From the NCBI GenBank assembly GCA_020721205.1, contig DYNF01000029.1, positions 1-41,486 on the forward strand: a stretch of 41,486 nucleotides of DNA. Reading direction: 5' to 3'. Each line of letters opens with the position of its first letter. Within the stretch, counting starts at the first letter, position 1. The stretch is from Prochloron sp. SulCav_FS08_3_32_3330 (GTDB taxonomy: Bacteria; Cyanobacteriota; Cyanobacteriia; Cyanobacteriales; DYNF01). The notes under the pieces are model-generated. The model searched no databases. It worked only from the letters and a program-made list of their open reading frames with translations, and had not been told where the DNA came from. Below are positions 1,336-34,928 of this stretch, piece by piece. The translations under genes were made by a program, and so were the position numbers.

Positions 1336-2433
1336 ATGGGCGAAAAACAAATGTTAATGATTCCGGGACCCACCCCCGTACCCGAAAAAGTGTTACTAGC
1401 CATGGCAAAACACCCGATCGGACACCGTAGCGCCGATTTTAGTAATATTATTGCCCAAGTAAATAAGGGTTTAAAATGGTTACATCAAACCAACAATGAA
1501 ATCTTAACCCTCGCCTCCAGTGGTACAGGGGCAATGGAAGCAGGTATTATTAACTTCTTAAGTCCGGGAGATAAAGTCTTAGTAGGAGATAACGGTAAAT
1601 TTGGAGAACGTTGGGGTAAACTTTGTCAAGCATTTGGCTTAGATACAGAAATCATTAAAGCAGAATGGGGACAACCCCTTGATCCTGAAGTTTTTAGGGA
1701 AAAATTAACAGCCGATACCAATAAAAAAATTAAAGCCGTTATTATTACCCATTCGGAAACTTCCACCGGAGTTTTAAATCCGCTTGAAGCGATTAATAAA
1801 GCAGTTAAAGATCATGGAGAAGCTTTAATTATTGTAGATGCCGTGACCAGTTTAGGCGCAACTAATGTACCCGTAGATCAATGGGGTTTAGACGTAGTCG
1901 CTTCTGGTTCTCAAAAAGGTTATATGATTCCTCCCGGACTCGGTTTTGTCGCCGTCAGTGAAAAAGCATGGAAAGCTTACGAAACTGCGAAATTACCTCG
2001 TTTTTATTTTGACCTTGGCAAATATAAAAAAGCCAACGCTAAAGATAGCACTCCTTTTACCCCCGCTATTAACCTTTATTTTGCCCTCAATACCGCATTA
2101 GAGTTAATGCAAGAAGAAGGTTTAGAAAATATTTTCGCCCGTCATCAACGCTTAACTAAAGTTACCCGAGAGGGAATAAAAGCTTTAGGATTGAAATTAT
2201 ATGCCCCTGATCAATATGCTAGTAATGCGATTACCGCCGTAGCTACTTCTCCCTTAAATGCGGAAGACTTACGGGGATATATTCGCAAAACTTATGATAT
2301 TGTCTTAGCAGGAGGACAAGATCACCTTAAAGGTCAAATTTTTCGGATTGGACATTTAGGTTTTTCTTGTGAACGAGAAATGTTAACTGTTTTAGCTGTA
2401 CTGAAAGAATCTTTAGCTACTTTACAGGCTTAA
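1336..2433 (+). CDS. Class V PLP aminotransferase, alanine/serine-glyoxylate aminotransferase type
   Basis: A cytoplasmic pyridoxal-phosphate enzyme of the class V aminotransferase family, predicted to move an amino group from alanine or serine to glyoxylate, which fits photorespiratory glycolate recycling. Visible motifs are the N-terminal PGPTPVP, the phosphate-binding SSGTGAME (61-68), the ring-binding Asp168 in IIVDAV, and the Schiff-base Lys194 in SGSQKGYM. The length of 365 residues suits the family. The start at 1336 has an AAGGAG ribosome-binding site at 1323-1328. Cyanobacterial members were historically called soluble hydrogenase 42-kDa subunit, a name now considered misleading. It is transcribed alone and converges on the DUF697 gene. 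The exact donor amino acid cannot be told from sequence. Confidence 0.9.
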   Translation: MGEKQMLMIPGPTPVPEKVLLAMAKHPIGHRSADFSNIIAQVNKGLKWLHQTNNEILTLASSGTGAMEAGIINFLSPGDKVLVGDNGKFGERWGKLCQAFGLDTEIIKAEWGQPLDPEVFREKLTADTNKKIKAVIITHSETSTGVLNPLEAINKAVKDHGEALIIVDAVTSLGATNVPVDQWGLDVVASGSQKGYMIPPGLGFVAVSEKAWKAYETAKLPRFYFDLGKYKKANAKDSTPFTPAINLYFALNTALELMQEEGLENIFARHQRLTKVTREGIKALGLKLYAPDQYASNAITAVATSPLNAEDLRGYIRKTYDIVLAGGQDHLKGQIFRIGHLGFSCEREMLTVLAVLKESLATLQA

Positions 2434-2462
2434 CCTATTCTTAACCTTAACTTAAAAAAATT

Positions 2463-2530
2463 GTAGGGTGGGCAATTTCTAATTATTTTGAAGTAAAAAT
2501 TTCAAACTTTTTAGGAATTGCCCACCCTAC
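2463..2530. repeat. Inverted repeat with GTAGGGTGGGCAATT arms
   Basis: The 15-bp arms at 2463-2477 and 2516-2530 are perfect inverted copies separated by 38 bp. The motif is a widespread cyanobacterial repeat type. It sits between two convergent genes and may also end transcription, though there is no strong U-tract. Confidence 0.88.
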
Positions 2531-2542
2531 GTTTTATTAAAA

Positions 2543-3103
2543 TTAAATTCGATCTAATAATTCTTTTTTCTTAGCTTGAAATTCATCTTCAGATAAAATA
2601 CCCTGTTCTTTAAGTTTACCCAATTTTTCCAAAGATTGATAAACATTAGCCACTTTATCTTCATCTTTTTCCAAATCAGAAACATAAGATTTTCCCCTTT
2701 CAAAAGCGTCTTCATAAGCTTTTTTTGCCTGTTGAAGATCAAAATCAACCAAGGATCCCGATCCCGAAAACACATTAATGGCAACTTGCCCCACAGCATA
2801 AGTGGAAGCCCCCGACATAATAGACATAGAAGCCCCTCCCACAAGCATACCAATCCCCGGAATAGCCTTAAGCATACTTGCCCCTAGACTTGCCAGAGTT
2901 GTGCCTGTAAGTGCCGATACAAAAGCTTTTCCGTTACTTTTGGAATAATTAACTTGATAAAGTTCAGCTAATTGTTGTAACATTTCTAATTGAATAGCGG
3001 TAACAGCCGCAAAGTCAACTAAAGGTATAGGAATCAGCCCACCACCCATTGCCCATAGAACATGAGTTCTAATAATTTTTTCTGCCTCAAAACGACTTGC
3101 CAT
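2543..3103 (-). CDS. DUF697-family membrane-associated protein with C-terminal SHOCT motif
   Basis: Residues about 5-125 match the DUF697 type: an early IPIPLVDFAAVTAIQLEML segment followed by two glycine- and alanine-rich hydrophobic helices (ALTGTTLASLGASMLKAIPGI and the following GMLVGG stretch). These probably insert in or lie on a membrane. A charged linker (about 126-155) leads to a SHOCT-like end (LKEQGILSEDEFQAKKKEL), a short module often found at the ends of prokaryotic membrane proteins. DUF697 domains are often attached to GTPases; no GTPase domain is present here or next door. The role is unknown. The stop lies 12 bp past the inverted repeat shared with the convergent aminotransferase gene. 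Confidence 0.78.
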   Translation of the reverse strand: MASRFEAEKIIRTHVLWAMGGGLIPIPLVDFAAVTAIQLEMLQQLAELYQVNYSKSNGKAFVSALTGTTLASLGASMLKAIPGIGMLVGGASMSIMSGASTYAVGQVAINVFSGSGSLVDFDLQQAKKAYEDAFERGKSYVSDLEKDEDKVANVYQSLEKLGKLKEQGILSEDEFQAKKKELLDRI

Positions 3104-3160
3104 AAATTTTTCCTTTGTAAAACTTATTTAATTATAGTAAGTTTAAAAGTAAAAAAATTG

Positions 3161-3407
3161 GTTCGTTGTTGCGCTTTAGCGCCACAATGCTCAGGGCGTT
3201 TTCATTCTTTTTTTTCCAACGGGTTAAAACCCGTTGCTATCCAAACAAAACCACGGGAGTCCTAGGTTTTAAGATTAAATATTAACTAATATTAAAAAAT
3301 TAAACCTGCGTAGGCAGGTTTTGCTTATGTAGCAACGGGTTAAAACCCGTTGCCTCCCGAGAATGAAAACGCCTATAGAATTGGGGCGCTAAAGCGCAAT
3401 AACGAAC
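3161..3407. repeat. Long inverted repeat interrupted by the MITE-like element
   Basis: The arms at 3161-3183 and 3385-3407 match at 22 of 23 positions (GTTCGTTGTTGCGCTTTAGC... against its complement). They enclose the MITE-like element at 3192-3373. Uninterrupted members of the hairpin family lie at 13970-14022 and 37013-37063, so this copy looks like a hairpin split by insertion. Confidence 0.82.
3192..3373. repeat. MITE-like palindromic element, copy A
   Basis: The left end CAGGGCGTTTTCATTC (3192-3207) and right end GAATGAAAACGCC (3361-3373) form terminal inverted repeats. Inside are the palindromes AACGGGTTAAAACCCGTT (twice), CCTAGG flanked by ACGGGAGT, and AAACCTGCGTAGGCAGGTTT. No reading frame is present. 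The last 3 bp of the right end (CTG) are missing and no target duplication is seen. It fills most of the gap between the DUF697 gene and the dehydrogenase gene. Confidence 0.85.
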
Positions 3408-3437
3408 AATTCTCCTTATTCTTAACATTTTAGAACT

Positions 3438-4295
3438 ATGAAAATTGGTATTTTAGGCACAGGTTTAATAGGATTTCCTCTAGGGTTAAGATTATTAGAA
3501 AATAACTATACTGTTATTGCTTATAATCGAACTTTTGAAAAATTATTACCTTTACAAAAAGCAGGAATTGAAGTATTTAATCAACCGCAAGAGGTAATAG
3601 AAAAGGCTGATATTTTAATTTTAATGTTAACAAATTATTCAGCAATTATTGAAGTTTTAGAGTTAAATACAAATGATTATAATTTAACTAATAAAACTGT
3701 TATTCAGATGGGAACGATCGCCCCGGATGAAAGTAAAAAAATTGCTCAAGAAGTAATCAAAAAAGGAGGAGAATATTTAGAAGCACCCGTATTAGGAAGT
3801 ATTCCCGAGGTAAAAAATGGTACTTTATTAGTGATGGTAGGAAGTACAGAAAATCAATTTAAAAAATATTACAATTTATTACAGAATTTCAGTCCAGAAC
3901 CTCAATTAATTGGAGAAATAGGCACAGCTTCCGCTTTAAAATTAGCCTTAAATCAATTAATTTCTAGTCTGACTACGGGCTTTAGTTTAAGTTTAGCTTT
4001 AATCGAAAAAGAAGGAGTAAATGTAGAGAAATTCATGAATATTTTAAGACAAAGTGCCTTATATGCTCCCACTTTTGATAAAAAATTAAAGCGAATGTTA
4101 GAAGGAGATTTTACTAATCCTAATTTTCCCACTAAACATTTATTAAAAGATACGGAACTTTTCTTAAATCAAGCTCAAACTTTAGGCTTAAATACTGATA
4201 GTTTAGAAGGAATTAAAAAAGTGATTGAAAAAGCGATAGAATTAGGCTTAGAAAATGAAGATTATTCCGCAATTTATCAAGCAATCATCTCGTAA
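3438..4295 (+). CDS. NAD(P)-dependent beta-hydroxyacid dehydrogenase (glyoxylate/succinic semialdehyde reductase-like)
   Basis: A Rossmann-fold oxidoreductase of the 3-hydroxyisobutyrate dehydrogenase family. The nucleotide-binding loop GILGTGLIGFPLG begins at residue 4. The substrate-binding segment is EAPVLGS (115-121), where the family usually has APVSGG. The catalytic Lys168 and Asn172 lie in the segment KLALN. The length of 285 residues fits the glyoxylate and succinic semialdehyde reductase branch, which detoxifies aldehydes and recycles glycolate-pathway glyoxylate. The substrate is inferred. No clear ribosome-binding site precedes the ATG at 3438. The stop codon lies inside a 13-bp direct repeat that flanks the next MITE-like element, so the insertion left the reading frame intact. 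Confidence 0.85.
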   Translation: MKIGILGTGLIGFPLGLRLLENNYTVIAYNRTFEKLLPLQKAGIEVFNQPQEVIEKADILILMLTNYSAIIEVLELNTNDYNLTNKTVIQMGTIAPDESKKIAQEVIKKGGEYLEAPVLGSIPEVKNGTLLVMVGSTENQFKKYYNLLQNFSPEPQLIGEIGTASALKLALNQLISSLTTGFSLSLALIEKEGVNVEKFMNILRQSALYAPTFDKKLKRMLEGDFTNPNFPTKHLLKDTELFLNQAQTLGLNTDSLEGIKKVIEKAIELGLENEDYSAIYQAIIS

Positions 4296-23891: not shown

Positions 23892-25643
23892 ATGAAACCC
23901 ACATTAATGCAAAAATTAAAAGTAGGACAAAAAATTAATTTGGGCTATGTAATCACCCTTGGTATTGCGGTGATTGGTACTGCGATTGGTGTAATATTAG
24001 GGGAGTTTTATCAGCATAATGCTTGGGAAGCTGAAGAACATTCTCAAGAAGAAATAGAATATATTTATAATTTACAAATTAGTTTATTATTATTAAGAAA
24101 TGATCAACAACAGTTAACTGGTATTCTATCAGATTCTCAACAATTTAATCAAAAGTATCAAGCAATTATAGAGGATGGCAATAATGCTCAAAAAAATTGG
24201 CAAGAATTACAAGATTTTTTTCAAGAAGTATTAAATAAACATCAAATTAATTATCAACCGAAAATTAATCAATATAATTTGAATTATCAAAATACAATTA
24301 ATAATTATCTAACAGAATTAGAAACAATAGTTAATCAAATAAAACCTTTAAATTTAGCGATTAATCAAAATTTACAATTAGCACAAACTAAACTGTTTAC
24401 ATTTTCTAATAGTGAAATTTCTCTAAAATTAGCTCAAATGTCCACAGAACTTTCTCAATTAAAAGAATTAGCAAATCAAGAATATTTAACCTCAGAAAAA
24501 GATGCTAAAGAGGCTGTTTTAATGAACCGTAAAATTATTATGGTTAGTATGATAGTTTCTTTAATTATGGCGGTTATTTTAGGTAATTATATTAATAAAT
24601 TGATTATTAATTCCTTAAAACAAGTTACTGAAGTGGCGAAACAAGTAACAGAAGAAGCTGATTTTAAACTACAAGTTCCAGTGGAGGGGAATGATGAAAT
24701 AGCGAAACTTGCTAGTTATTTTAATTTATTAATTCAAAAAGTAAACACGCTTTTAGAAGAACAGAAACTATTAACGGAAGAACAAGTTATTAAAACTCAA
24801 CAAGTAAGACAACTATTAGAGGAACAGAAAAAAGCGACGGAAGAACAACTTATTCAAAGTGAAAAAATGTCTTCTTTAGGGAGAATGTTAGCCGGAGTTG
24901 CACACGAAATTAATAATCCGATTAATTTTATTTATGGTAATTTAATTCATGCGAATGATTATATTAAAGATTTATTGGAATTAGTAGAAACTTATCAAGA
25001 GGAAATTCCTAATCCTCCTGAAACGGTATCAGAAATGAGGGAAGAAATTGATGTAGAATTTTTAGCAGAAGATTTACCAAAATTGATTGATTCGATTAAA
25101 ATAGGGGCGGAAAGAACTAGACAAATTGCTTTAAGTTTACGGAATTTTTCCCGTTTAGAAGAAACTAATCCTCATTTATTAGATCTTCATGATTGTATTG
25201 ATAGTACCCTTGTTATTTTACATAACCGGATTAAAAAAGGAATTAATATTGAAAAAGAATATGGTAAAATTCCTGAAATTGAAGGTTTTGCGGGGTCTTT
25301 ATATCAAGTATTTATGAATTTAATTAGTAATAGCATTGATGCTTTATTAGAGAAAGAATCTATAAATCCCACTATTACTATTATGACGGAATTAGAACCG
25401 GAAAAGAAAGAATCAGTTATTATTAAAATTAAGGATAATGGCTTAGGAATTTCTCCTGAAAATCAAACAAAAATCTTTGATACTTTTTTCACTACTAAAC
25501 CGAGGGGAATCGGTACTGGTTTAGGTTTGGCTATTACTAAAGAAATTATTGTAGACAAACATCACGGGAAAATTAATTGTTCTTCTCAAGAAGGGATCGG
25601 TACGGAATTTATGATTATTTTACCTGTGGAATATTCGCAATAG
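23892..25643 (+). CDS. Membrane sensor histidine kinase
   Basis: A 583-residue kinase. Membrane helices at about 19-38 and 215-233 bracket a roughly 175-residue extracytoplasmic, helix-rich sensor domain. A HAMP-like linker (about 235-285) and coiled coil (LLEEQKLLTEEQ...) follow, then HisKA with phosphate-accepting His338 (GRMLAGVAHEINNPINFIYG). The ATP-binding domain has the N-box FMNLISNSIDALL, then IKDNGLGISPENQ and GTGLGLAITKEI. The HEINNP form is typical of the HK4/HrmK-like group. There is no response regulator next to it. The signal sensed is unknown. Confidence 0.92.
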   Translation: MKPTLMQKLKVGQKINLGYVITLGIAVIGTAIGVILGEFYQHNAWEAEEHSQEEIEYIYNLQISLLLLRNDQQQLTGILSDSQQFNQKYQAIIEDGNNAQKNWQELQDFFQEVLNKHQINYQPKINQYNLNYQNTINNYLTELETIVNQIKPLNLAINQNLQLAQTKLFTFSNSEISLKLAQMSTELSQLKELANQEYLTSEKDAKEAVLMNRKIIMVSMIVSLIMAVILGNYINKLIINSLKQVTEVAKQVTEEADFKLQVPVEGNDEIAKLASYFNLLIQKVNTLLEEQKLLTEEQVIKTQQVRQLLEEQKKATEEQLIQSEKMSSLGRMLAGVAHEINNPINFIYGNLIHANDYIKDLLELVETYQEEIPNPPETVSEMREEIDVEFLAEDLPKLIDSIKIGAERTRQIALSLRNFSRLEETNPHLLDLHDCIDSTLVILHNRIKKGINIEKEYGKIPEIEGFAGSLYQVFMNLISNSIDALLEKESINPTITIMTELEPEKKESVIIKIKDNGLGISPENQTKIFDTFFTTKPRGIGTGLGLAITKEIIVDKHHGKINCSSQEGIGTEFMIILPVEYSQ

Positions 25644-28420: not shown

Positions 28421-28738
28421 ATGCCATCTTTAGTTACTTCAAAACATATTCAAATTACTCCGGGTATCTGTGGCGGAAAACCTCGTATTGCTGGACATAG
28501 AATTAAAGTCTCCGATATTGTAATTTGGCATGAAAGAATGGGAATGTCACCTGATGAAATAATTTTTCATCATCCGACTATTACCCTCGCAGATGTTTAT
28601 GCGTCCTTGAGTTATTATCATGATCATCGAGAAGAAATTAGACAACAAATTGAAGATGGAGAAGCTTTTGCTAAAAAATTACAAGGGGATAAACCATCTT
28701 TAATTGATAAAATATTGAAGGGTGAAAATGTCAAATAA
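28421..28738 (+). CDS. DUF433 family antitoxin (VapB-like)
   Basis: A 105-residue protein of the DUF433 family, winged-helix DNA-binding antitoxins. The core CGGKPRIAGHRIKVSDIVIW and the following segment with MGMSPDEII and TLADVYASLSYY are characteristic. It overlaps the start of the broken toxin gene by 11 bp (stop at 28736-28738, toxin ATG at 28728). The locus lies between two M16 peptidase genes, so it was probably inserted. With the toxin truncated, it is now an orphan antitoxin. Confidence 0.86.
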   Translation: MPSLVTSKHIQITPGICGGKPRIAGHRIKVSDIVIWHERMGMSPDEIIFHHPTITLADVYASLSYYHDHREEIRQQIEDGEAFAKKLQGDKPSLIDKILKGENVK

Positions 28739-28856
28739 AATAAAATTTCATCTGGATGAAAGTGTTAGTAATGCCATTGCTAAAATATTGAATATTTGTA
28801 ATAAAATTAAATTTAAGGTGGGTAATGAGGTTAATTTCTTCAAATATTATTCATAA
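28728..28856 (+). pseudogene. Truncated DUF5615 (Mut7-C/PIN-like) toxin partner of the DUF433 antitoxin
   Basis: The frame starts MSNKIKFHLDESVSNAIAKI and runs 42 codons before a stop. FHLDESVSNAIA matches the N-terminus of DUF5615 PIN-like toxins, which are normally about 110-120 residues and usually follow DUF433 antitoxins. The remaining sequence to 28959 has no continuation, so the toxin has lost its later acidic residues. Confidence 0.78.
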
Positions 28857-30419: not shown

Positions 30420-33400
30420 CTAAACACTATTATTATCTAAAACTAACTTTAATTCTTCAATTAATTCAGGAAAATGATGTAAATTTTGCGTAATATTATC
30501 TACATCAAACTCAATTAAACTTTGAGAAAGTTGATAACTATAATTTAATAACGGTTGATATCTATATTCAATGCCTAATTTTTGCAAAGATTGGGAAAAT
30601 TGACGAATTTCACTAATTAAATGTTTTTGATTGATTTCTTGCCAAATTTCAGCTTTAATATTTTGTAATTGATTTAATAAATCAGGTAATTTATGAGTAA
30701 TTTCTGGAGTAAGTTTGTCCAAAATATTCGCTTTAATTTTATCTGTTGAACTAGCTTTTCCATTAATTCTACAACTAGAAGGAAATAGTTTTTGTAAAGC
30801 TTTAATAATGTCAAAACGATGCACAGGTTTTACTAAAAATTCCTCAATTTTGTCCGTTAAATTTTTATTATCTTTATATTCAACGGAAGCACTTAAAATT
30901 AAAATAGGAATGTTTTTTGTTTTTTCATTATTGCTAACTTTTTCAATAAATTTAATACTATCAAATTGAGGCATTTTTAAATCTAAAAAGATTAAACTTA
31001 TTGATTCTTGTTCGAGAATAGACATCGCATCTAAATCATTATTAGCAAAAAATAACTGATGATGACTATGCACAAAATAAGCTTTAATTAAGTCTAAATG
31101 AGACTGAATATCATCAATATATAAAATAGTTTGGGGCGGAAATTGATTAAGATCGGGATTAATTTCTGTTTCAAGATTTAGCAATAAATTATCTTCACAA
31201 ATTTGCACATTCGGAAAGGTAAAAGTAAAAATACTACCTTGATTTATTTGACTTTCTAAAGTAACAGTTCCCCCTAATATTTCCGTTAAACTTTTGGTTA
31301 AAGTTAACCCTAAACCAGTGTGATGATATTGTTCAGGAATACCCGTTTTAACCTGTTGAAATGCCTCAAAAATATCTTTTTGTTCTTGGGGATCAATGCC
31401 GATTCCTGTATCTTCAATTTTAATAATTAAAGTACAGGTTTTCATCAGTTCTTTTTGATCTGATTCTTGGAAATTTTCACTACTAACTAAGATTTTAAGA
31501 TAACCTTGATTGGTAAATTTTAAAGCATTCCCTACTACATTTAATAAAATTTGTCTAAGTCTAATTTTATCAAATATAATCACTTTAGGTACTAAGGTTT
31601 TAATTTCACTAATAAAATCTAATTTTTTACTTTGAATTTGATAAAGAAAAATCTCTTGAATATCCTGTAAAAATTGATATATATTAATCGGTTCATTATG
31701 TAATTGTAATTTTTTTGATTCAATTTTTGATAGATCTAAAATATCATTAATTAAAGCTAATAATGCCTCTCCACTTTTGACAATAGAATCTAAATAAGAT
31801 AGACTTAACGAATCTTCTATTTTCTCTTTTAATAATTCCGAAAACCCTAAAATTGCATTCATGGGAGTGCGGATCTCATAACTCATATTTGCCAAAAATT
31901 TATTTTTCGCTTCATTAGTCTGTGTTACTTGATTTTTGATAGTTTCTAAAGCCATATTTTTTAAAGTTAATTCTGCTTTTTGTTTCTGTTCTTGTTCTAA
32001 TTTTTTTTCTAATAAAATTTCAGCGACTTTTCTTTCTTCAATATCTTCTAACATTAAAATAAAATAAAGTGGTCTTTTTTCTTCATCTTTAATTAAAGAT
32101 AAAAATAAATGTCCCCACCGACAAGAATTATCAGATATTTGATAACATTTTTCTTCTTTAAAATAGGCTTTTTCACCCTTTACAATTTCCTCTAAAATTC
32201 TAGCAAAAGATTGATCAGATTCTTCTAGTCTAAATTCCATAAAATTTTTGTTTAAAATCTCTGATTGATCCAGTGCAAAAAATTGACAAAATTTCTGATT
32301 GATTTGGATAATTTCCCCAGTCAAAGATAAAATACTCATCCCCATTTCTGCTTGTTCAAATATCCCTCTAAAACGGGCTTCACTATCATTTAAAGCCTGT
32401 TGAGTTTGTTTAATATCTGTTAATTCTGTCATAACAATTCCTACCCCTTGATCATTAATTTTAATAAAGCTTAAAACTACTCCATTATAATTACCATTAT
32501 TCGTATTATAAGGATGAATACGCATCAAAAAATAATCATTAGTTTTCTTAATTTTAACCTCTTTTTCTATTACTTTTTGCGTTTGTTCCACTTCCTGTAA
32601 TAATTCTAATAAATTTTGACAGTCTAAATTATGAGTTAAATGATTAATCGGTCGCTCAATATCCGTATCTAATAAATTAATTGCTACTGTTGCAGAGGGG
32701 GTAAATTTACGAATTTTTAACTCTTTATCTAAAAAAATAACCCCAATATTACTACTACATAATAACTTATTTATCTCATTACTCCATTGAGTTAAATCTT
32801 TAATTTTTGATTGATACTCAGTATTAACTATATATAATTCTTCATTTATATTTTGTAATTCCTCATTTGTTGACTGTTGTTCCTCATTCGTTGTTTCTAA
32901 TTCTTCAATCGTAGTCTGTAAATTTTCTTTATTCTGTTGTAATTCATTCTCTAATTCTACAATGCGTTGTGCTGATTCTACCTCGATCTGATCTTTCTCC
33001 GGTTTTTCCGCTATCTGAGGATCAATTTCAGTCTCAATTACGACCATTAAAAAATCGTCAACCGCTTGATTTCCATCACAATAACTCACTTTTACTCTTA
33101 AATTACGGCTTTCTGTCTCACTTTCCTCTAAATAAATCCCCGTATATAACACAGAACGGTTATTTCTTCCTGCACGGTGTAAAGCGGTACTAACAGGGAC
33201 TTGTAAAACCTTGGGTAACATCACAGTAATCTCTTTTGTAATGCGTCCTCTGGGCATTTGTAACACTTTTGCACCATCAGAAATTAAATGAATTAACTCC
33301 TGATTTCGATTAACTAAAAGGCAGGTATAACCCCGATCTTCCATAAAATTACCCATTGCTTCATCTAAAATAGGATCAAAACGATATTGAGGATTTCTCT

Positions 33401-34928
33401 CTATTTTAGAAGGAAAACTGAGGGAAGTGGGGAAAATTTGATTGTCTGATTGTTTAATCGGCAACCTCACATTACGACGTTTTTGATAAATGCGATATTG
33501 TTCGTGGAGGGGAATAAATTCACCCTCAATTTCCCCGGTAGTTTCTGCCATTCCTAAAAATAAAATACCCTTAACTATGAGGGAAAAATGCAACATTCTC
33601 AAAACTTGTTGTTGTAATTTTGGTTGCATATAAATTAAAACATTACGACAACTAATGAGGTTCATTCGAGTAAAACCTGCATTTTTTACGAGGTTATGAG
33701 GTGCAAATATGAGTAAATCTCGTATTTTTCGAGAGATAATAAAGCTTTGATTGCGAAAAGTAAAATATTTTACCAGACGATCCGCAGAAATATCCTTGGC
33801 AATACTTTCAGGATAAATACCTTCAGAGGCTTTAGCCAGTGCTTCATTATCTATATCCGTGGCAAAAATTTTCACATTAAACATTTTGCCTGTTCTTTCT
33901 ATTGCCTCATGAATTAAGATCGCCATAGAATAGGCTTCTTCCCCTGTTGAACAGGCTGTTATCCATACTCTTAACTGTTGTTTATCTTCTAAACTACTGA
34001 TTAAATTAGGAATTATTTGAGTTTCTAAATATGTCCATACCTCTTTATCTCTAAAAAAACGAGTAACTCCGATTAAAAGATCATTCCTTAAGAGGGATAT
34101 TTGATCAAAATTTTTCTCTAAATAAGCAACATAATCAGGTAAATTATTAAATCCGGCTAAAGAACAACGACGATAAATACGACGGGAAAGGGTAGTTAAT
34201 TTATAAGAAGAAAAATCTATTTCTTCAGATTCATTTAAGAGTTTAATAATACTATTTAAGATATTATCTTCAATTTTTATCTCTAAATTCATCTCTTTTT
34301 GTCTTTGAAAATTGTGCATTTGGACTAAATCATAAATACTTTGGGCAATATCTTTCGCTGATAAAACCTGATCAATCACACCAGTGGCGATCGCACTTTG
34401 GGGCATTCCGTCAAACTCGGCGGTAAGGGGGGATTGAACGAAACACAGACCTCCATTTTGACTAATCGTTTGTAAACCGATCGTCCCATCAGTTCCCGTG
34501 CCTGAAAGCACTACTCCCACAGCTTTTTCATGACAGTCTTCCCCTAGAGACTGAAAAAATAAATCAATGGGAAAATGGGGATGATGACGGTTTTGTTCCT
34601 GTTCAATCAGACTTAAATGACGATTTTTAATAATTAAATTATGACGTGGAGGGATTAAATAGATTCTATTCGGTTCTAGTTTCATCCCATCGCTAACTCT
34701 GTTAACTACCATTTGAGTATGGCGTTCTAATAACTCTTTCATTAAACTCTTAAAATCGGGAGAAAGATGCTGGATCACAACAAAAGTTGCCCCGCTATCG
34801 GGGGGCAGATGATCAAAAAATTCTTCTAAGGCGCGCAATCCTCCGGCGGAAGCACCTATTCCTACCACAAAAAAGTTCTCAGTTTTATTTTGAGATAAAC
34901 AGTCCAAATTTTCTTGATCTTGAGACAT
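30420..34928 (-). CDS. CheB-CheR-PAS hybrid histidine kinase with Tyr at the phosphate-accepting position
   Basis: A 1502-residue multidomain protein. In order: CheB methylesterase (about 15-200; GIGASAGGLRALEEFF, IQHLSPDF, LSGTGTDGTIG); CheR methyltransferase (about 220-480; WITACSTGEEAYSMAILI, NLISCRNVLIYM); a flexible part with a Gln/Glu coiled coil (about 645-720); PAS domains (about 720-970); HisKA; HATPase; and a receiver (about 1270-1390), then a helical tail. HisKA reads FLANMSYEIRTPMNAI: Tyr1017 (TAT at 31878-31880) replaces the usual His. The ATP site (NVVGNALKFT, DTGIGIDPQ, HHTGLGLTL) and receiver Asp1316 (LIFLDLKMPQ) look intact. CheB-CheR fusions of this type are common in cyanobacteria and need not serve chemotaxis. 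No chemotaxis genes are adjacent. Confidence 0.9.
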   Translation of the reverse strand: MSQDQENLDCLSQNKTENFFVVGIGASAGGLRALEEFFDHLPPDSGATFVVIQHLSPDFKSLMKELLERHTQMVVNRVSDGMKLEPNRIYLIPPRHNLIIKNRHLSLIEQEQNRHHPHFPIDLFFQSLGEDCHEKAVGVVLSGTGTDGTIGLQTISQNGGLCFVQSPLTAEFDGMPQSAIATGVIDQVLSAKDIAQSIYDLVQMHNFQRQKEMNLEIKIEDNILNSIIKLLNESEEIDFSSYKLTTLSRRIYRRCSLAGFNNLPDYVAYLEKNFDQISLLRNDLLIGVTRFFRDKEVWTYLETQIIPNLISSLEDKQQLRVWITACSTGEEAYSMAILIHEAIERTGKMFNVKIFATDIDNEALAKASEGIYPESIAKDISADRLVKYFTFRNQSFIISRKIRDLLIFAPHNLVKNAGFTRMNLISCRNVLIYMQPKLQQQVLRMLHFSLIVKGILFLGMAETTGEIEGEFIPLHEQYRIYQKRRNVRLPIKQSDNQIFPTSLSFPSKIERNPQYRFDPILDEAMGNFMEDRGYTCLLVNRNQELIHLISDGAKVLQMPRGRITKEITVMLPKVLQVPVSTALHRAGRNNRSVLYTGIYLEESETESRNLRVKVSYCDGNQAVDDFLMVVIETEIDPQIAEKPEKDQIEVESAQRIVELENELQQNKENLQTTIEELETTNEEQQSTNEELQNINEELYIVNTEYQSKIKDLTQWSNEINKLLCSSNIGVIFLDKELKIRKFTPSATVAINLLDTDIERPINHLTHNLDCQNLLELLQEVEQTQKVIEKEVKIKKTNDYFLMRIHPYNTNNGNYNGVVLSFIKINDQGVGIVMTELTDIKQTQQALNDSEARFRGIFEQAEMGMSILSLTGEIIQINQKFCQFFALDQSEILNKNFMEFRLEESDQSFARILEEIVKGEKAYFKEEKCYQISDNSCRWGHLFLSLIKDEEKRPLYFILMLEDIEERKVAEILLEKKLEQEQKQKAELTLKNMALETIKNQVTQTNEAKNKFLANMSYEIRTPMNAILGFSELLKEKIEDSLSLSYLDSIVKSGEALLALINDILDLSKIESKKLQLHNEPINIYQFLQDIQEIFLYQIQSKKLDFISEIKTLVPKVIIFDKIRLRQILLNVVGNALKFTNQGYLKILVSSENFQESDQKELMKTCTLIIKIEDTGIGIDPQEQKDIFEAFQQVKTGIPEQYHHTGLGLTLTKSLTEILGGTVTLESQINQGSIFTFTFPNVQICEDNLLLNLETEINPDLNQFPPQTILYIDDIQSHLDLIKAYFVHSHHQLFFANNDLDAMSILEQESISLIFLDLKMPQFDSIKFIEKVSNNEKTKNIPILILSASVEYKDNKNLTDKIEEFLVKPVHRFDIIKALQKLFPSSCRINGKASSTDKIKANILDKLTPEITHKLPDLLNQLQNIKAEIWQEINQKHLISEIRQFSQSLQKLGIEYRYQPLLNYSYQLSQSLIEFDVDNITQNLHHFPELIEELKLVLDNNSV

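What the first reader, a model, noticed from the sequence alone, without database searches (positions are those of the whole stretch)
31854..31905. Hybrid kinase lacks the phosphate-accepting histidine (His to Tyr1017)
HisKA reads FLANMSYEIRTPMNAI with TAT at 31878-31880; the standard sequence has CAT (His), one transition away. The rest of HisKA, the ATP-binding boxes and receiver Asp1316 look intact. The protein may be a pseudokinase whose CheB/CheR and receiver parts are still used, may phosphorylate by another route, or may be a recent mutation or sequencing error.
Basis: partly seen in the sequence, partly recalled or inferred. Interest (0 to 1): 0.68.

Follow-up and report, generated by a model that had tools for sequence, protein, structure and literature searches.

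The report
Kinase half turned pseudokinase
A large bacterial sensor protein has a tyrosine where the phosphate-carrying histidine should be and a damaged ATP-binding lid, so its kinase half has probably stopped being an enzyme while its two chemotaxis-type enzyme domains look intact.

Summary
In detail: residue 1017 of the 1502-aa CheB-CheR-PAS-PAS-HisKA-HATPase-REC protein is Tyr (TAT, 31878-31880). In 148 genomes of the order the exact motif occurs once with Tyr (here) and 1,496 times with His; 34 of 34 aligned relatives have His.

The claim of intact ATP boxes is wrong. The G2 box/lid reads EQYHHTGLGL against typically RKYGGTGLGL: G1203 is Gly in 34 of 34 relatives, R1199 Arg or Lys in 34 of 34. 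G1202H and G1203H each need two or more base changes, so one sequencing error does not explain the set. The kinase-receiver half has the longest branch of 35 rows; CheB and CheR are normally conserved.

A second, separate kinase of the same genome (C193, beside a CheR gene) shows His to Tyr plus loss of the same G2 glycine; 46 of 47 His kinases read keep it.

Best reading: a lineage-specific pseudokinase working like DivL or RetS. Tyr at this site is known (DivL, green-algal CSK); the architecture and double loss are a new variant. Nothing was tested biochemically.

The parts
30420..34928 (-). CheB-CheR-PAS-PAS-HisKA-HATPase-REC hybrid protein, 1502 aa
34335..34865 (-). CheB methylesterase domain (residues 22-198), GASAGG/IQHLSP/TDGT motifs present
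   Evidence: Pfam 195 bits; motifs; 3 of 55 conserved columns deviate
33507..34256 (-). CheR methyltransferase, N-terminal and SAM-binding domains (residues 225-474)
   Evidence: Pfam 42.4 and 167.7 bits; 4 of 91 conserved columns deviate
32457..32774 (-). PAS_10 domain (residues 719-824)
   Evidence: Pfam 79.8 bits
32040..32375 (-). PAS domain (residues 852-963)
   Evidence: Pfam 55.3 bits
31716..31910 (-). HisKA/DHp domain (residues 1007-1071)
   Evidence: Pfam 64.6 bits; 71.8 bits
31878..31880 (-). Tyr1017 (TAT) at the phosphoacceptor position; neighbours E1018 and T1021 kept
31209..31571 (-). HATPase_c/CA domain (residues 1120-1240)
   Evidence: Pfam 78.5 bits; 5 of 44 conserved columns deviate, next highest of 35 rows has 2
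31320..31334 (-). Altered ATP lid/G2 box: E1199, Q1200, Y1201, H1202, H1203 before TGLGL
30795..31127 (-). Receiver domain (residues 1268-1378), catalytic D1272, D1273, D1316, K1367 kept, otherwise divergent
   Evidence: Pfam 50.9 bits; 9 of 29 conserved columns deviate, next 5; residues
30423..30731 (-). C-terminal tail (residues 1400-1502), shared with relatives, no confident Pfam family
   Evidence: 0 of 11 conserved columns deviate; DALR_1 20.5 bits, below its cut-off

Best explanation
The kinase half of this CheB-CheR-PAS-HK-REC hybrid is a lineage-specific pseudokinase. It has lost the phosphoacceptor His (Tyr1017) and the usual residues of the ATP lid (R1199E, G1202H, G1203H), so it should not autophosphorylate (inferred, not assayed). 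The DHp helices still dimerise and offer a response-regulator docking face (inferred); E1018 and T1021, the other residues of the HExxT phosphatase motif, are kept (shown by sequence). The receiver keeps its catalytic residues (shown) and would receive phosphoryl groups from another kinase, for example one of the genome's similar hybrid kinases that has His (C154, C121, C18) (inferred). PAS input and receiver state would then gate the conserved CheB methylesterase/CheR methyltransferase part, which may act on proteins with the genome's seven MCP signal domains (inferred). It works like DivL or RetS: a kinase fold re-used as a phospho-sensor or regulator of partners.
For: Tyr in 1 of 1,497 matches to this motif; His in 34 of 34 relatives. 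Losses beyond the His: G1203H (Gly in 34 of 34), R1199E (33 Arg, 1 Lys), G1202H (31 Gly, 3 Glu). CA has 5 deviations at columns at least 90% conserved, no other of 35 rows has more than 2; REC 9, next 5; DHp 4, second of 35. Longest end branch, 1.72 against at most 1.16. CheB 3 of 55 and CheR 4 of 91 deviations, mid-range; branch 0.38; motifs present. Parallel in the same genome: C193 Tyr kinase with G2 Gly to Lys and N-box Lys to Asn, while 46 of 47 His kinases read keep that Gly. Solved precedents match the region: DivL 4q20 at 73 bits, RetS at 109 bits; their functions in PMC4211667 and PMC5992135 (passages). Seven MCP signal-domain matches in the genome.
Against: N box, DTGIG and TGLGL are kept and HATPase_c scores 78.5 bits, well above its cut-off, so ATP may still bind. 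Another Tyr lineage (L068/L069) keeps its GxGLGL, so Tyr does not always go with G2 loss. Genus and family hold only this genome, so age and selection on Tyr cannot be measured. The rate contrast with the own paralogue is partly due to that paralogue's fast CheB-CheR part, and the C-terminal half evolves faster than the N-terminal half in G070/G087 too. REC also deviates strongly, so its activity is not assured. No partner kinase is shown; AlphaFold gave only pLDDT 59.
Confidence: 0.62

Rival explanations
1. The kinase half is simply vestigial: selection on it is relaxed, it carries no signal, and the protein persists only for its CheB-CheR (and perhaps PAS) activities.
For: CA and receiver deviate most of all 35 rows while CheB and CheR are mid-range; longest branch; very low GC3 in residues 701-1502.
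Against: The ORF has no stop or frameshift over 1502 codons; the N box, DTGIG, E1018, T1021 and four catalytic receiver residues survive; the tail shows 0 of 11 deviations.
Confidence: 0.22
2. Sequencing or assembly error, or a very recent single point mutation at an otherwise normal kinase.
For: CAT to TAT is one transition; the relatives aligned have His; reads cannot be inspected here.
Against: Three further conserved lid residues differ, two of them needing at least two base changes each (codons); the whole half is divergent.
Confidence: 0.06
3. Tyr1017 is a real phosphoacceptor: a tyrosine autokinase or a substrate of another kinase.
For: Tyr, a phosphorylatable residue, is what replaces His in both degenerate CheR-linked kinases here and in other lineages.
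Against: The lid is damaged; for DivL the paper reports no kinase activity of the Tyr form (PMC4211667, passages). His to Tyr is a single C to T transition, so mutation alone favours it.
Confidence: 0.05
4. It is still a working kinase in trans: its ATP domain phosphorylates the His of a different, His-bearing partner in a heterodimer.
For: DHp is 74% identical to the own paralogue C154; part of the ATP-binding motifs is kept.
Against: Losses fall in the ATP lid, which such a role would need.
Confidence: 0.05

Closest known systems
DivL of Caulobacter crescentus (Tyr550 pseudo-histidine kinase, PDB 4q20)
   Same: Tyr in place of the acceptor His within an otherwise recognisable HisKA-HATPase core behind PAS domains; functions without kinase activity (PMC4211667, passages).
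   Different: DivL appears to keep all characteristic boxes by that paper, is PAS-DHp-CA without CheB, CheR or REC, and is alphaproteobacterial; here the G2 box/lid is altered. 4q20 is only the 14th PDB match (73 bits against 162 for the best).
RetS of Pseudomonas aeruginosa
   Same: Degenerate HATPase with retained HisKA and receiver; cannot autophosphorylate; uses receiver, phosphatase motif and core contacts to control another kinase (PMC5992135, passages).
   Different: RetS keeps its H box and lacks the G boxes; the present protein lost His and part of G2, and bears CheB-CheR instead of a periplasmic sensor.
Chloroplast sensor kinase (CSK) of green algae
   Same: Tyr replaces the H-box His (PMC2677595, passages).
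   Different: Putative GAF sensor, plastid protein (same passages); that it has no CheB, CheR or REC is recall.
CheB-CheR fusion sensor kinases with His (own C154; G070, G087, G100)
   Same: CheB-CheR in front, the same kinase-receiver-tail at the end; 56-65% identity in CheB-CheR, 44-48% in DHp-CA-REC.
   Different: They have His, lid Arg and GGTGLGL, and middle parts of other lengths.
Own-genome C193 Tyr kinase
   Same: His to Tyr with loss of the G2 first Gly; beside a CheR gene.
   Different: Another kinase subfamily, 445 aa, PAS-HisKA-HATPase, no receiver match; the relatives read have His.

Membership tests
Hybrid histidine kinase (HisKA PF00512, HATPase_c PF02518, Response_reg PF00072) | Domains present above curated cut-offs | tested here: met
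   64.6, 78.5 and 50.9 bits against cut-offs 26.9, 26.4 and 30.2
Hybrid histidine kinase (HisKA PF00512, HATPase_c PF02518, Response_reg PF00072) | Phosphoacceptor His in the H box | tested here: not met
   Tyr1017; His in 34 of 34 relatives
Hybrid histidine kinase (HisKA PF00512, HATPase_c PF02518, Response_reg PF00072) | G2 box GxGLGL and lid Arg | tested here: not met
   HTGLGL, first Gly lost; R1199E
Hybrid histidine kinase (HisKA PF00512, HATPase_c PF02518, Response_reg PF00072) | Autokinase activity | not testable with these tools
   needs a biochemical assay
DivL | Tyr at the acceptor position | tested here: met
   Tyr1017
DivL | Other HK boxes retained | tested here: not met
   R1199E, G1202H, G1203H; DivL state from PMC4211667, passages
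DivL | Closest sequence kin, PAS-DHp-CA without CheB/CheR/REC | tested here: not met
   CheB, CheR, REC present; 13 PDB sequences score above 4q20
RetS-like degenerate regulator | Degenerate HATPase with retained E and T of HExxT and a phosphorylatable receiver | tested here: inconclusive
   E1018, T1021 and receiver D/K residues kept; His itself lost, lid only partly degenerate and receiver divergent
RetS-like degenerate regulator | Binds and inhibits a partner kinase | not testable with these tools
   no partner known
CheB-CheR fusion proteins | CheB and CheR domains with conserved motifs | tested here: met
   195 and 167.7 bits; motifs as in the 16 relatives with small variations, e.g. T instead of S/N before DGT; calling these motifs catalytic is recall

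The most novel reading that the evidence does not exclude
In this lineage kinases tied to CheR-type methylation have twice been turned into tyrosine pseudokinases by the same combination of losses (acceptor His to Tyr plus the first G2 glycine): once in a CheB-CheR fusion (C71) and once in a kinase encoded beside a CheR gene (C193). They would be phospho-sensors that gate receptor methylation from the phosphorylation state of other systems, a link between methylation-based adaptation and phosphorelays for which the listings showed no description.
Probability: 0.18. Interest if true: 0.62.

Novelty: new variant of a known kind. Interest (0 to 1): 0.42.

Why it matters
To my knowledge few bacterial pseudo-histidine kinases have been studied. 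A natural case in which acceptor His and ATP lid are both lost while the fused CheB-CheR enzymes stay conserved would show that the kinase fold can be kept as a regulator inside a methylation enzyme. The rare His-to-Tyr change is also a simple genome-wide flag: in the sampled genomes it also picks out a HisKA-EAL family in which no ATPase domain was found.

Tried and rejected
The genome-contig scan with the whole protein found 9 loci, eight Microcystis and one Alteromonas, 27-32% identical over the kinase-receiver part only, so no orthologue. Genus and family searches held only the window's own genome. The looser S-Y-E-x-R pattern gave 55 places in 42 of 148 genomes, and its reversed control also hits in many genomes; of 51 places read, 8 lie in HisKA contexts and the rest do not look like HisKA by eye, being short frames or other proteins; 4 places were not read (two in G095, one each in G003 and G085).

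The relative-rate count against the own paralogue C154 (28 against 9 unique changes in DHp-CA, 24 against 69 in CheB-CheR; in DHp alone 5 against 4 and in REC alone 9 against 7, not different) was given little weight, because in the CheB-CheR tree C154 lies outside the weakly supported group of query, G071, G070, G087 and G100 and is itself fast. An AlphaFold model of residues 980-1502 with six sequences reached mean pLDDT 59 and pTM 0.41, too weak for a fold search, which was not run. A weak Pfam match of the tail to DALR_1 (20.5 bits, below its cut-off) was taken as chance. Uneven base composition within the gene was noted, not explained.

Literature: the listings (titles and abstract beginnings) showed no paper on a Tyr-type CheB-CheR hybrid kinase in this open-access library; CheB-CheR fusions as such are mentioned (RC1_3878 in PMC2890560; Geobacter in a table of PMC8396549; passages). 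PMC6194562 (passages) uses the words for neighbouring genes. PMC9953108 was searched for relevant words only.

Row choices: the 35-row alignment took matches over 350 bits that cover the region, with rows of identical core dropped (L035 and L036, the same genes as L115 and L117). The 61 rows include such repeats, and one (D) is a misaligned second hit. Of the 30 loci, one is the window itself and 29 were read; the other matches listed there were not read, except those already held from other calls. Of 37 other matches to C193, 29 were read. Of the 80 own His kinases, the lid was read in 47.

Full report
What is there. The minus-strand ORF 30420-34928 encodes 1502 residues without a break. Pfam gives CheB (22-198), CheR_N and CheR (225-474), PAS_10 (719-824), PAS (852-963), HisKA (1007-1071), HATPase_c (1120-1240) and a receiver (1268-1378). 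The codon at 31880-31878 is TAT, Tyr1017, where HisKA domains carry the phosphoacceptor His. The genome is probably cyanobacterial (inference): 16 copies of GCGATCGC in 41 kb at 32% GC, read as HIP1 from recall, and Microcystis among the nearest named matches.

Rarity. A DNA pattern for A-N-M-[mostly S/T]-Y-E-x-R-T-P matched one place in 148 genomes of the order, the window itself. The same pattern with a His codon matched 1,496 places in 134 of those genomes (sum). Of the genome's 85 PF00512 matches, the acceptor residue read from DNA is His in 80, Tyr in 2 (this gene and C193), Gln in 2 (C97, C199) and Asn in 1 (C203) (84; this gene).

Relatives. No genome of the same genus or family is held besides the window's own. 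In 148 order genomes, 13 (the own one included) have a match at E of 1e-200 or less to the whole protein, aligned over the CheB-CheR part and in a few cases onward into the PAS part. A search with residues 980-1502 over 388 genomes found matches at E of 1e-105 or less in 76; of its 30 loci one is the window and 29 were read. In the alignment of 34 distinct C-terminal relatives (those 29, plus C154, C18, two from C121 and one from G100) all 34 have His at 1017. In the wider set of 61 rows, repeats included, 57 have His, 3 have Tyr (C193 and the pair L068/L069) and one is a misaligned second hit.

The ATP lid is not intact. Relatives typically read R-K-Y-G-G-T-G-L-G-L; this protein reads E-Q-Y-H-H-T-G-L-G-L. 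G1203, the first Gly of GxGLGL, is Gly in 34 of 34 relatives; R1199 is Arg in 33 and Lys in 1; G1202 is Gly in 31 and Glu in 3. The codons here are GAA, CAT and CAC. By the genetic code G1202H and G1203H each need at least two base changes, and so does R1199E unless it went through Lys, so one base-calling error cannot account for the set. The N box (NVVGNALKFT), DTGIG, F box and TGLGL remain.

The losses concentrate in the kinase-receiver half. At columns at least 90% conserved among the other rows, this protein deviates at 4 of 37 in DHp (second of 35 rows), 5 of 44 in CA (next highest 2) and 9 of 29 in REC (next highest 5), but 0 of 11 in the tail. In the maximum-likelihood tree of these rows it has the longest end branch, 1.72; the next are 1.16, 1.11, 1.10 and 1.02. 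In the CheB-CheR part it deviates at 3 of 55 and 4 of 91 conserved columns, mid-range among 17 rows, with end branch 0.38 and motifs much as in relatives. Caution: the C-terminal half evolves faster than the N-terminal half in G070/G087 too, and the direct relative-rate count against the own paralogue C154 is inflated by that paralogue's fast CheB-CheR part; taken alone, DHp and REC show no excess there. The receiver keeps D1272, D1273, D1316 and K1367.

A parallel in the same genome. A 445-aa PAS-HisKA-HATPase kinase on contig C193 reads S-Y-E-V-R-N-P. It lies 332 bases downstream of, and on the same strand as, a gene for a CheR-PAS protein. The 30 relative rows read, from 29 of 37 other matches, have His, the nearest at 48% identity, so this looks like a separate His-to-Tyr event. 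It has N-box Lys to Asn (NAVNF) and G2 first Gly to Lys (KIGLGL). Of 47 His-bearing kinases of this genome whose lid was read (of 80), 46 keep the G2 first Gly (30 of 30, 16 of 17); neither Tyr kinase does. By simple hypergeometric arithmetic (not a call) that is about 0.003, but on only two cases.

Other Tyr cases. In the looser pattern search 51 of 55 places were read and 8 lie in HisKA contexts: the two above, a Cache-HAMP-HisKA-HATPase-REC-SpoIIE protein in two species of one genus (L068, L069), and a HisKA-EAL protein without a HATPase match in four genomes (L056, L084, L088, L089) (Pfam was run on L056, L084, L088 and L068, the other two assigned by near-identical sequence). Tyr at the acceptor site thus recurs in unrelated lineages. 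It does not always go with a lost G2 glycine: L068/L069 keep GxGLGL.

Mechanism. Shown by sequence: loss of the acceptor His and of lid residues; retention of E1018 and T1021, of receiver catalytic residues, and of CheB-CheR motifs. Inferred: no autophosphorylation; DHp acting as dimeriser, docking face or phosphatase; receiver fed by other kinases, for which the similar His hybrids on C154, C121 and C18 are candidates; output through CheB-CheR on proteins with the genome's seven MCP signal-domain matches. Precedents: DivL carries Tyr550, lacks kinase activity and senses DivK~P (PMC4211667, passages); RetS has a degenerate HATPase yet controls GacS through its receiver, its HExxT motif and core contacts (PMC5992135, passages); a ChrS pseudokinase arose in laboratory evolution and promotes signalling by a paralogous kinase (PMC9491836, passages); green-algal CSK has Tyr at this site (PMC2677595, passages).

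Membership. It is a hybrid histidine kinase by domain content but fails two defining features (acceptor His, G2/lid). It works like DivL or RetS, but is not filed as a member of either: DivL keeps its other boxes and lacks CheB, CheR and REC, and 13 PDB sequences match better than DivL 4q20.

Verdict. A real, lineage-specific, probably functional pseudokinase rather than an error; the kind is known, the architecture and double loss are a new variant. Age, selection and activity cannot be settled without siblings and assays.

Noticed in passing
L052:4214-5551 (+), own genome contig C193: Second kinase with Tyr at the acceptor site in the same genome (S-Y-E-V-R-N-P), also with altered N box (NAVNF) and G2 box (KIGLGL), 332 bases downstream of a CheR-PAS gene (2040-3881).
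   Followed up: yes
L056:567-1628, L084:3115-4260, L088:2836-3999, L089:2549-3709: HisKA-like segment with Tyr (SYELRTP/SYEFRTP) fused directly to an EAL domain, without a HATPase match (Pfam run on the first three), in four genomes of the order.
   Followed up: partly
L068:1-3018 and L069:3-3020: Cache-HAMP-HisKA-HATPase-REC-SpoIIE hybrid with Tyr at the acceptor site in two species of one genus; N box (INNAIKFT) and GxGLGL look kept.
   Followed up: partly
L248:15-1469 (C97), L249:278-1891 (C203), L250:948-1646 (C199): Three further own-genome HisKA matches without His: Gln (C97, GAF-HisKA with no HATPase match), Asn (C203) and Gln (C199, short).
   Followed up: partly
window 30420-34928: GC3 falls from 0.27 in codons 1-700 to 0.13-0.16 in codons 701-1502 of the same gene; the own paralogue shows a weaker step (0.19 to 0.14).
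   Followed up: partly
L048:2230-6282 (-), own contig C154: The His-bearing paralogue shows the opposite pattern: normal kinase motifs but the longest CheB-CheR end branch (1.0) of 17 rows.
   Followed up: partly
window 28421-28738 (+) and 28728-28856 (+): DUF433 gene (70.5 bits) followed by a short open stretch MSNKIKFHLDESVSNAIAKI... of 42 codons; possibly a truncated partner gene.
   Followed up: no
window 23892-25643 (+): Another histidine kinase in the window (HAMP, HATPase_c) with a normal AHEINNP H box.
   Followed up: no
window 30423-30731 (-): About 100 residues after the receiver, shared by this kinase subfamily, without a confident Pfam family; predicted as low-confidence helices.
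   Followed up: partly
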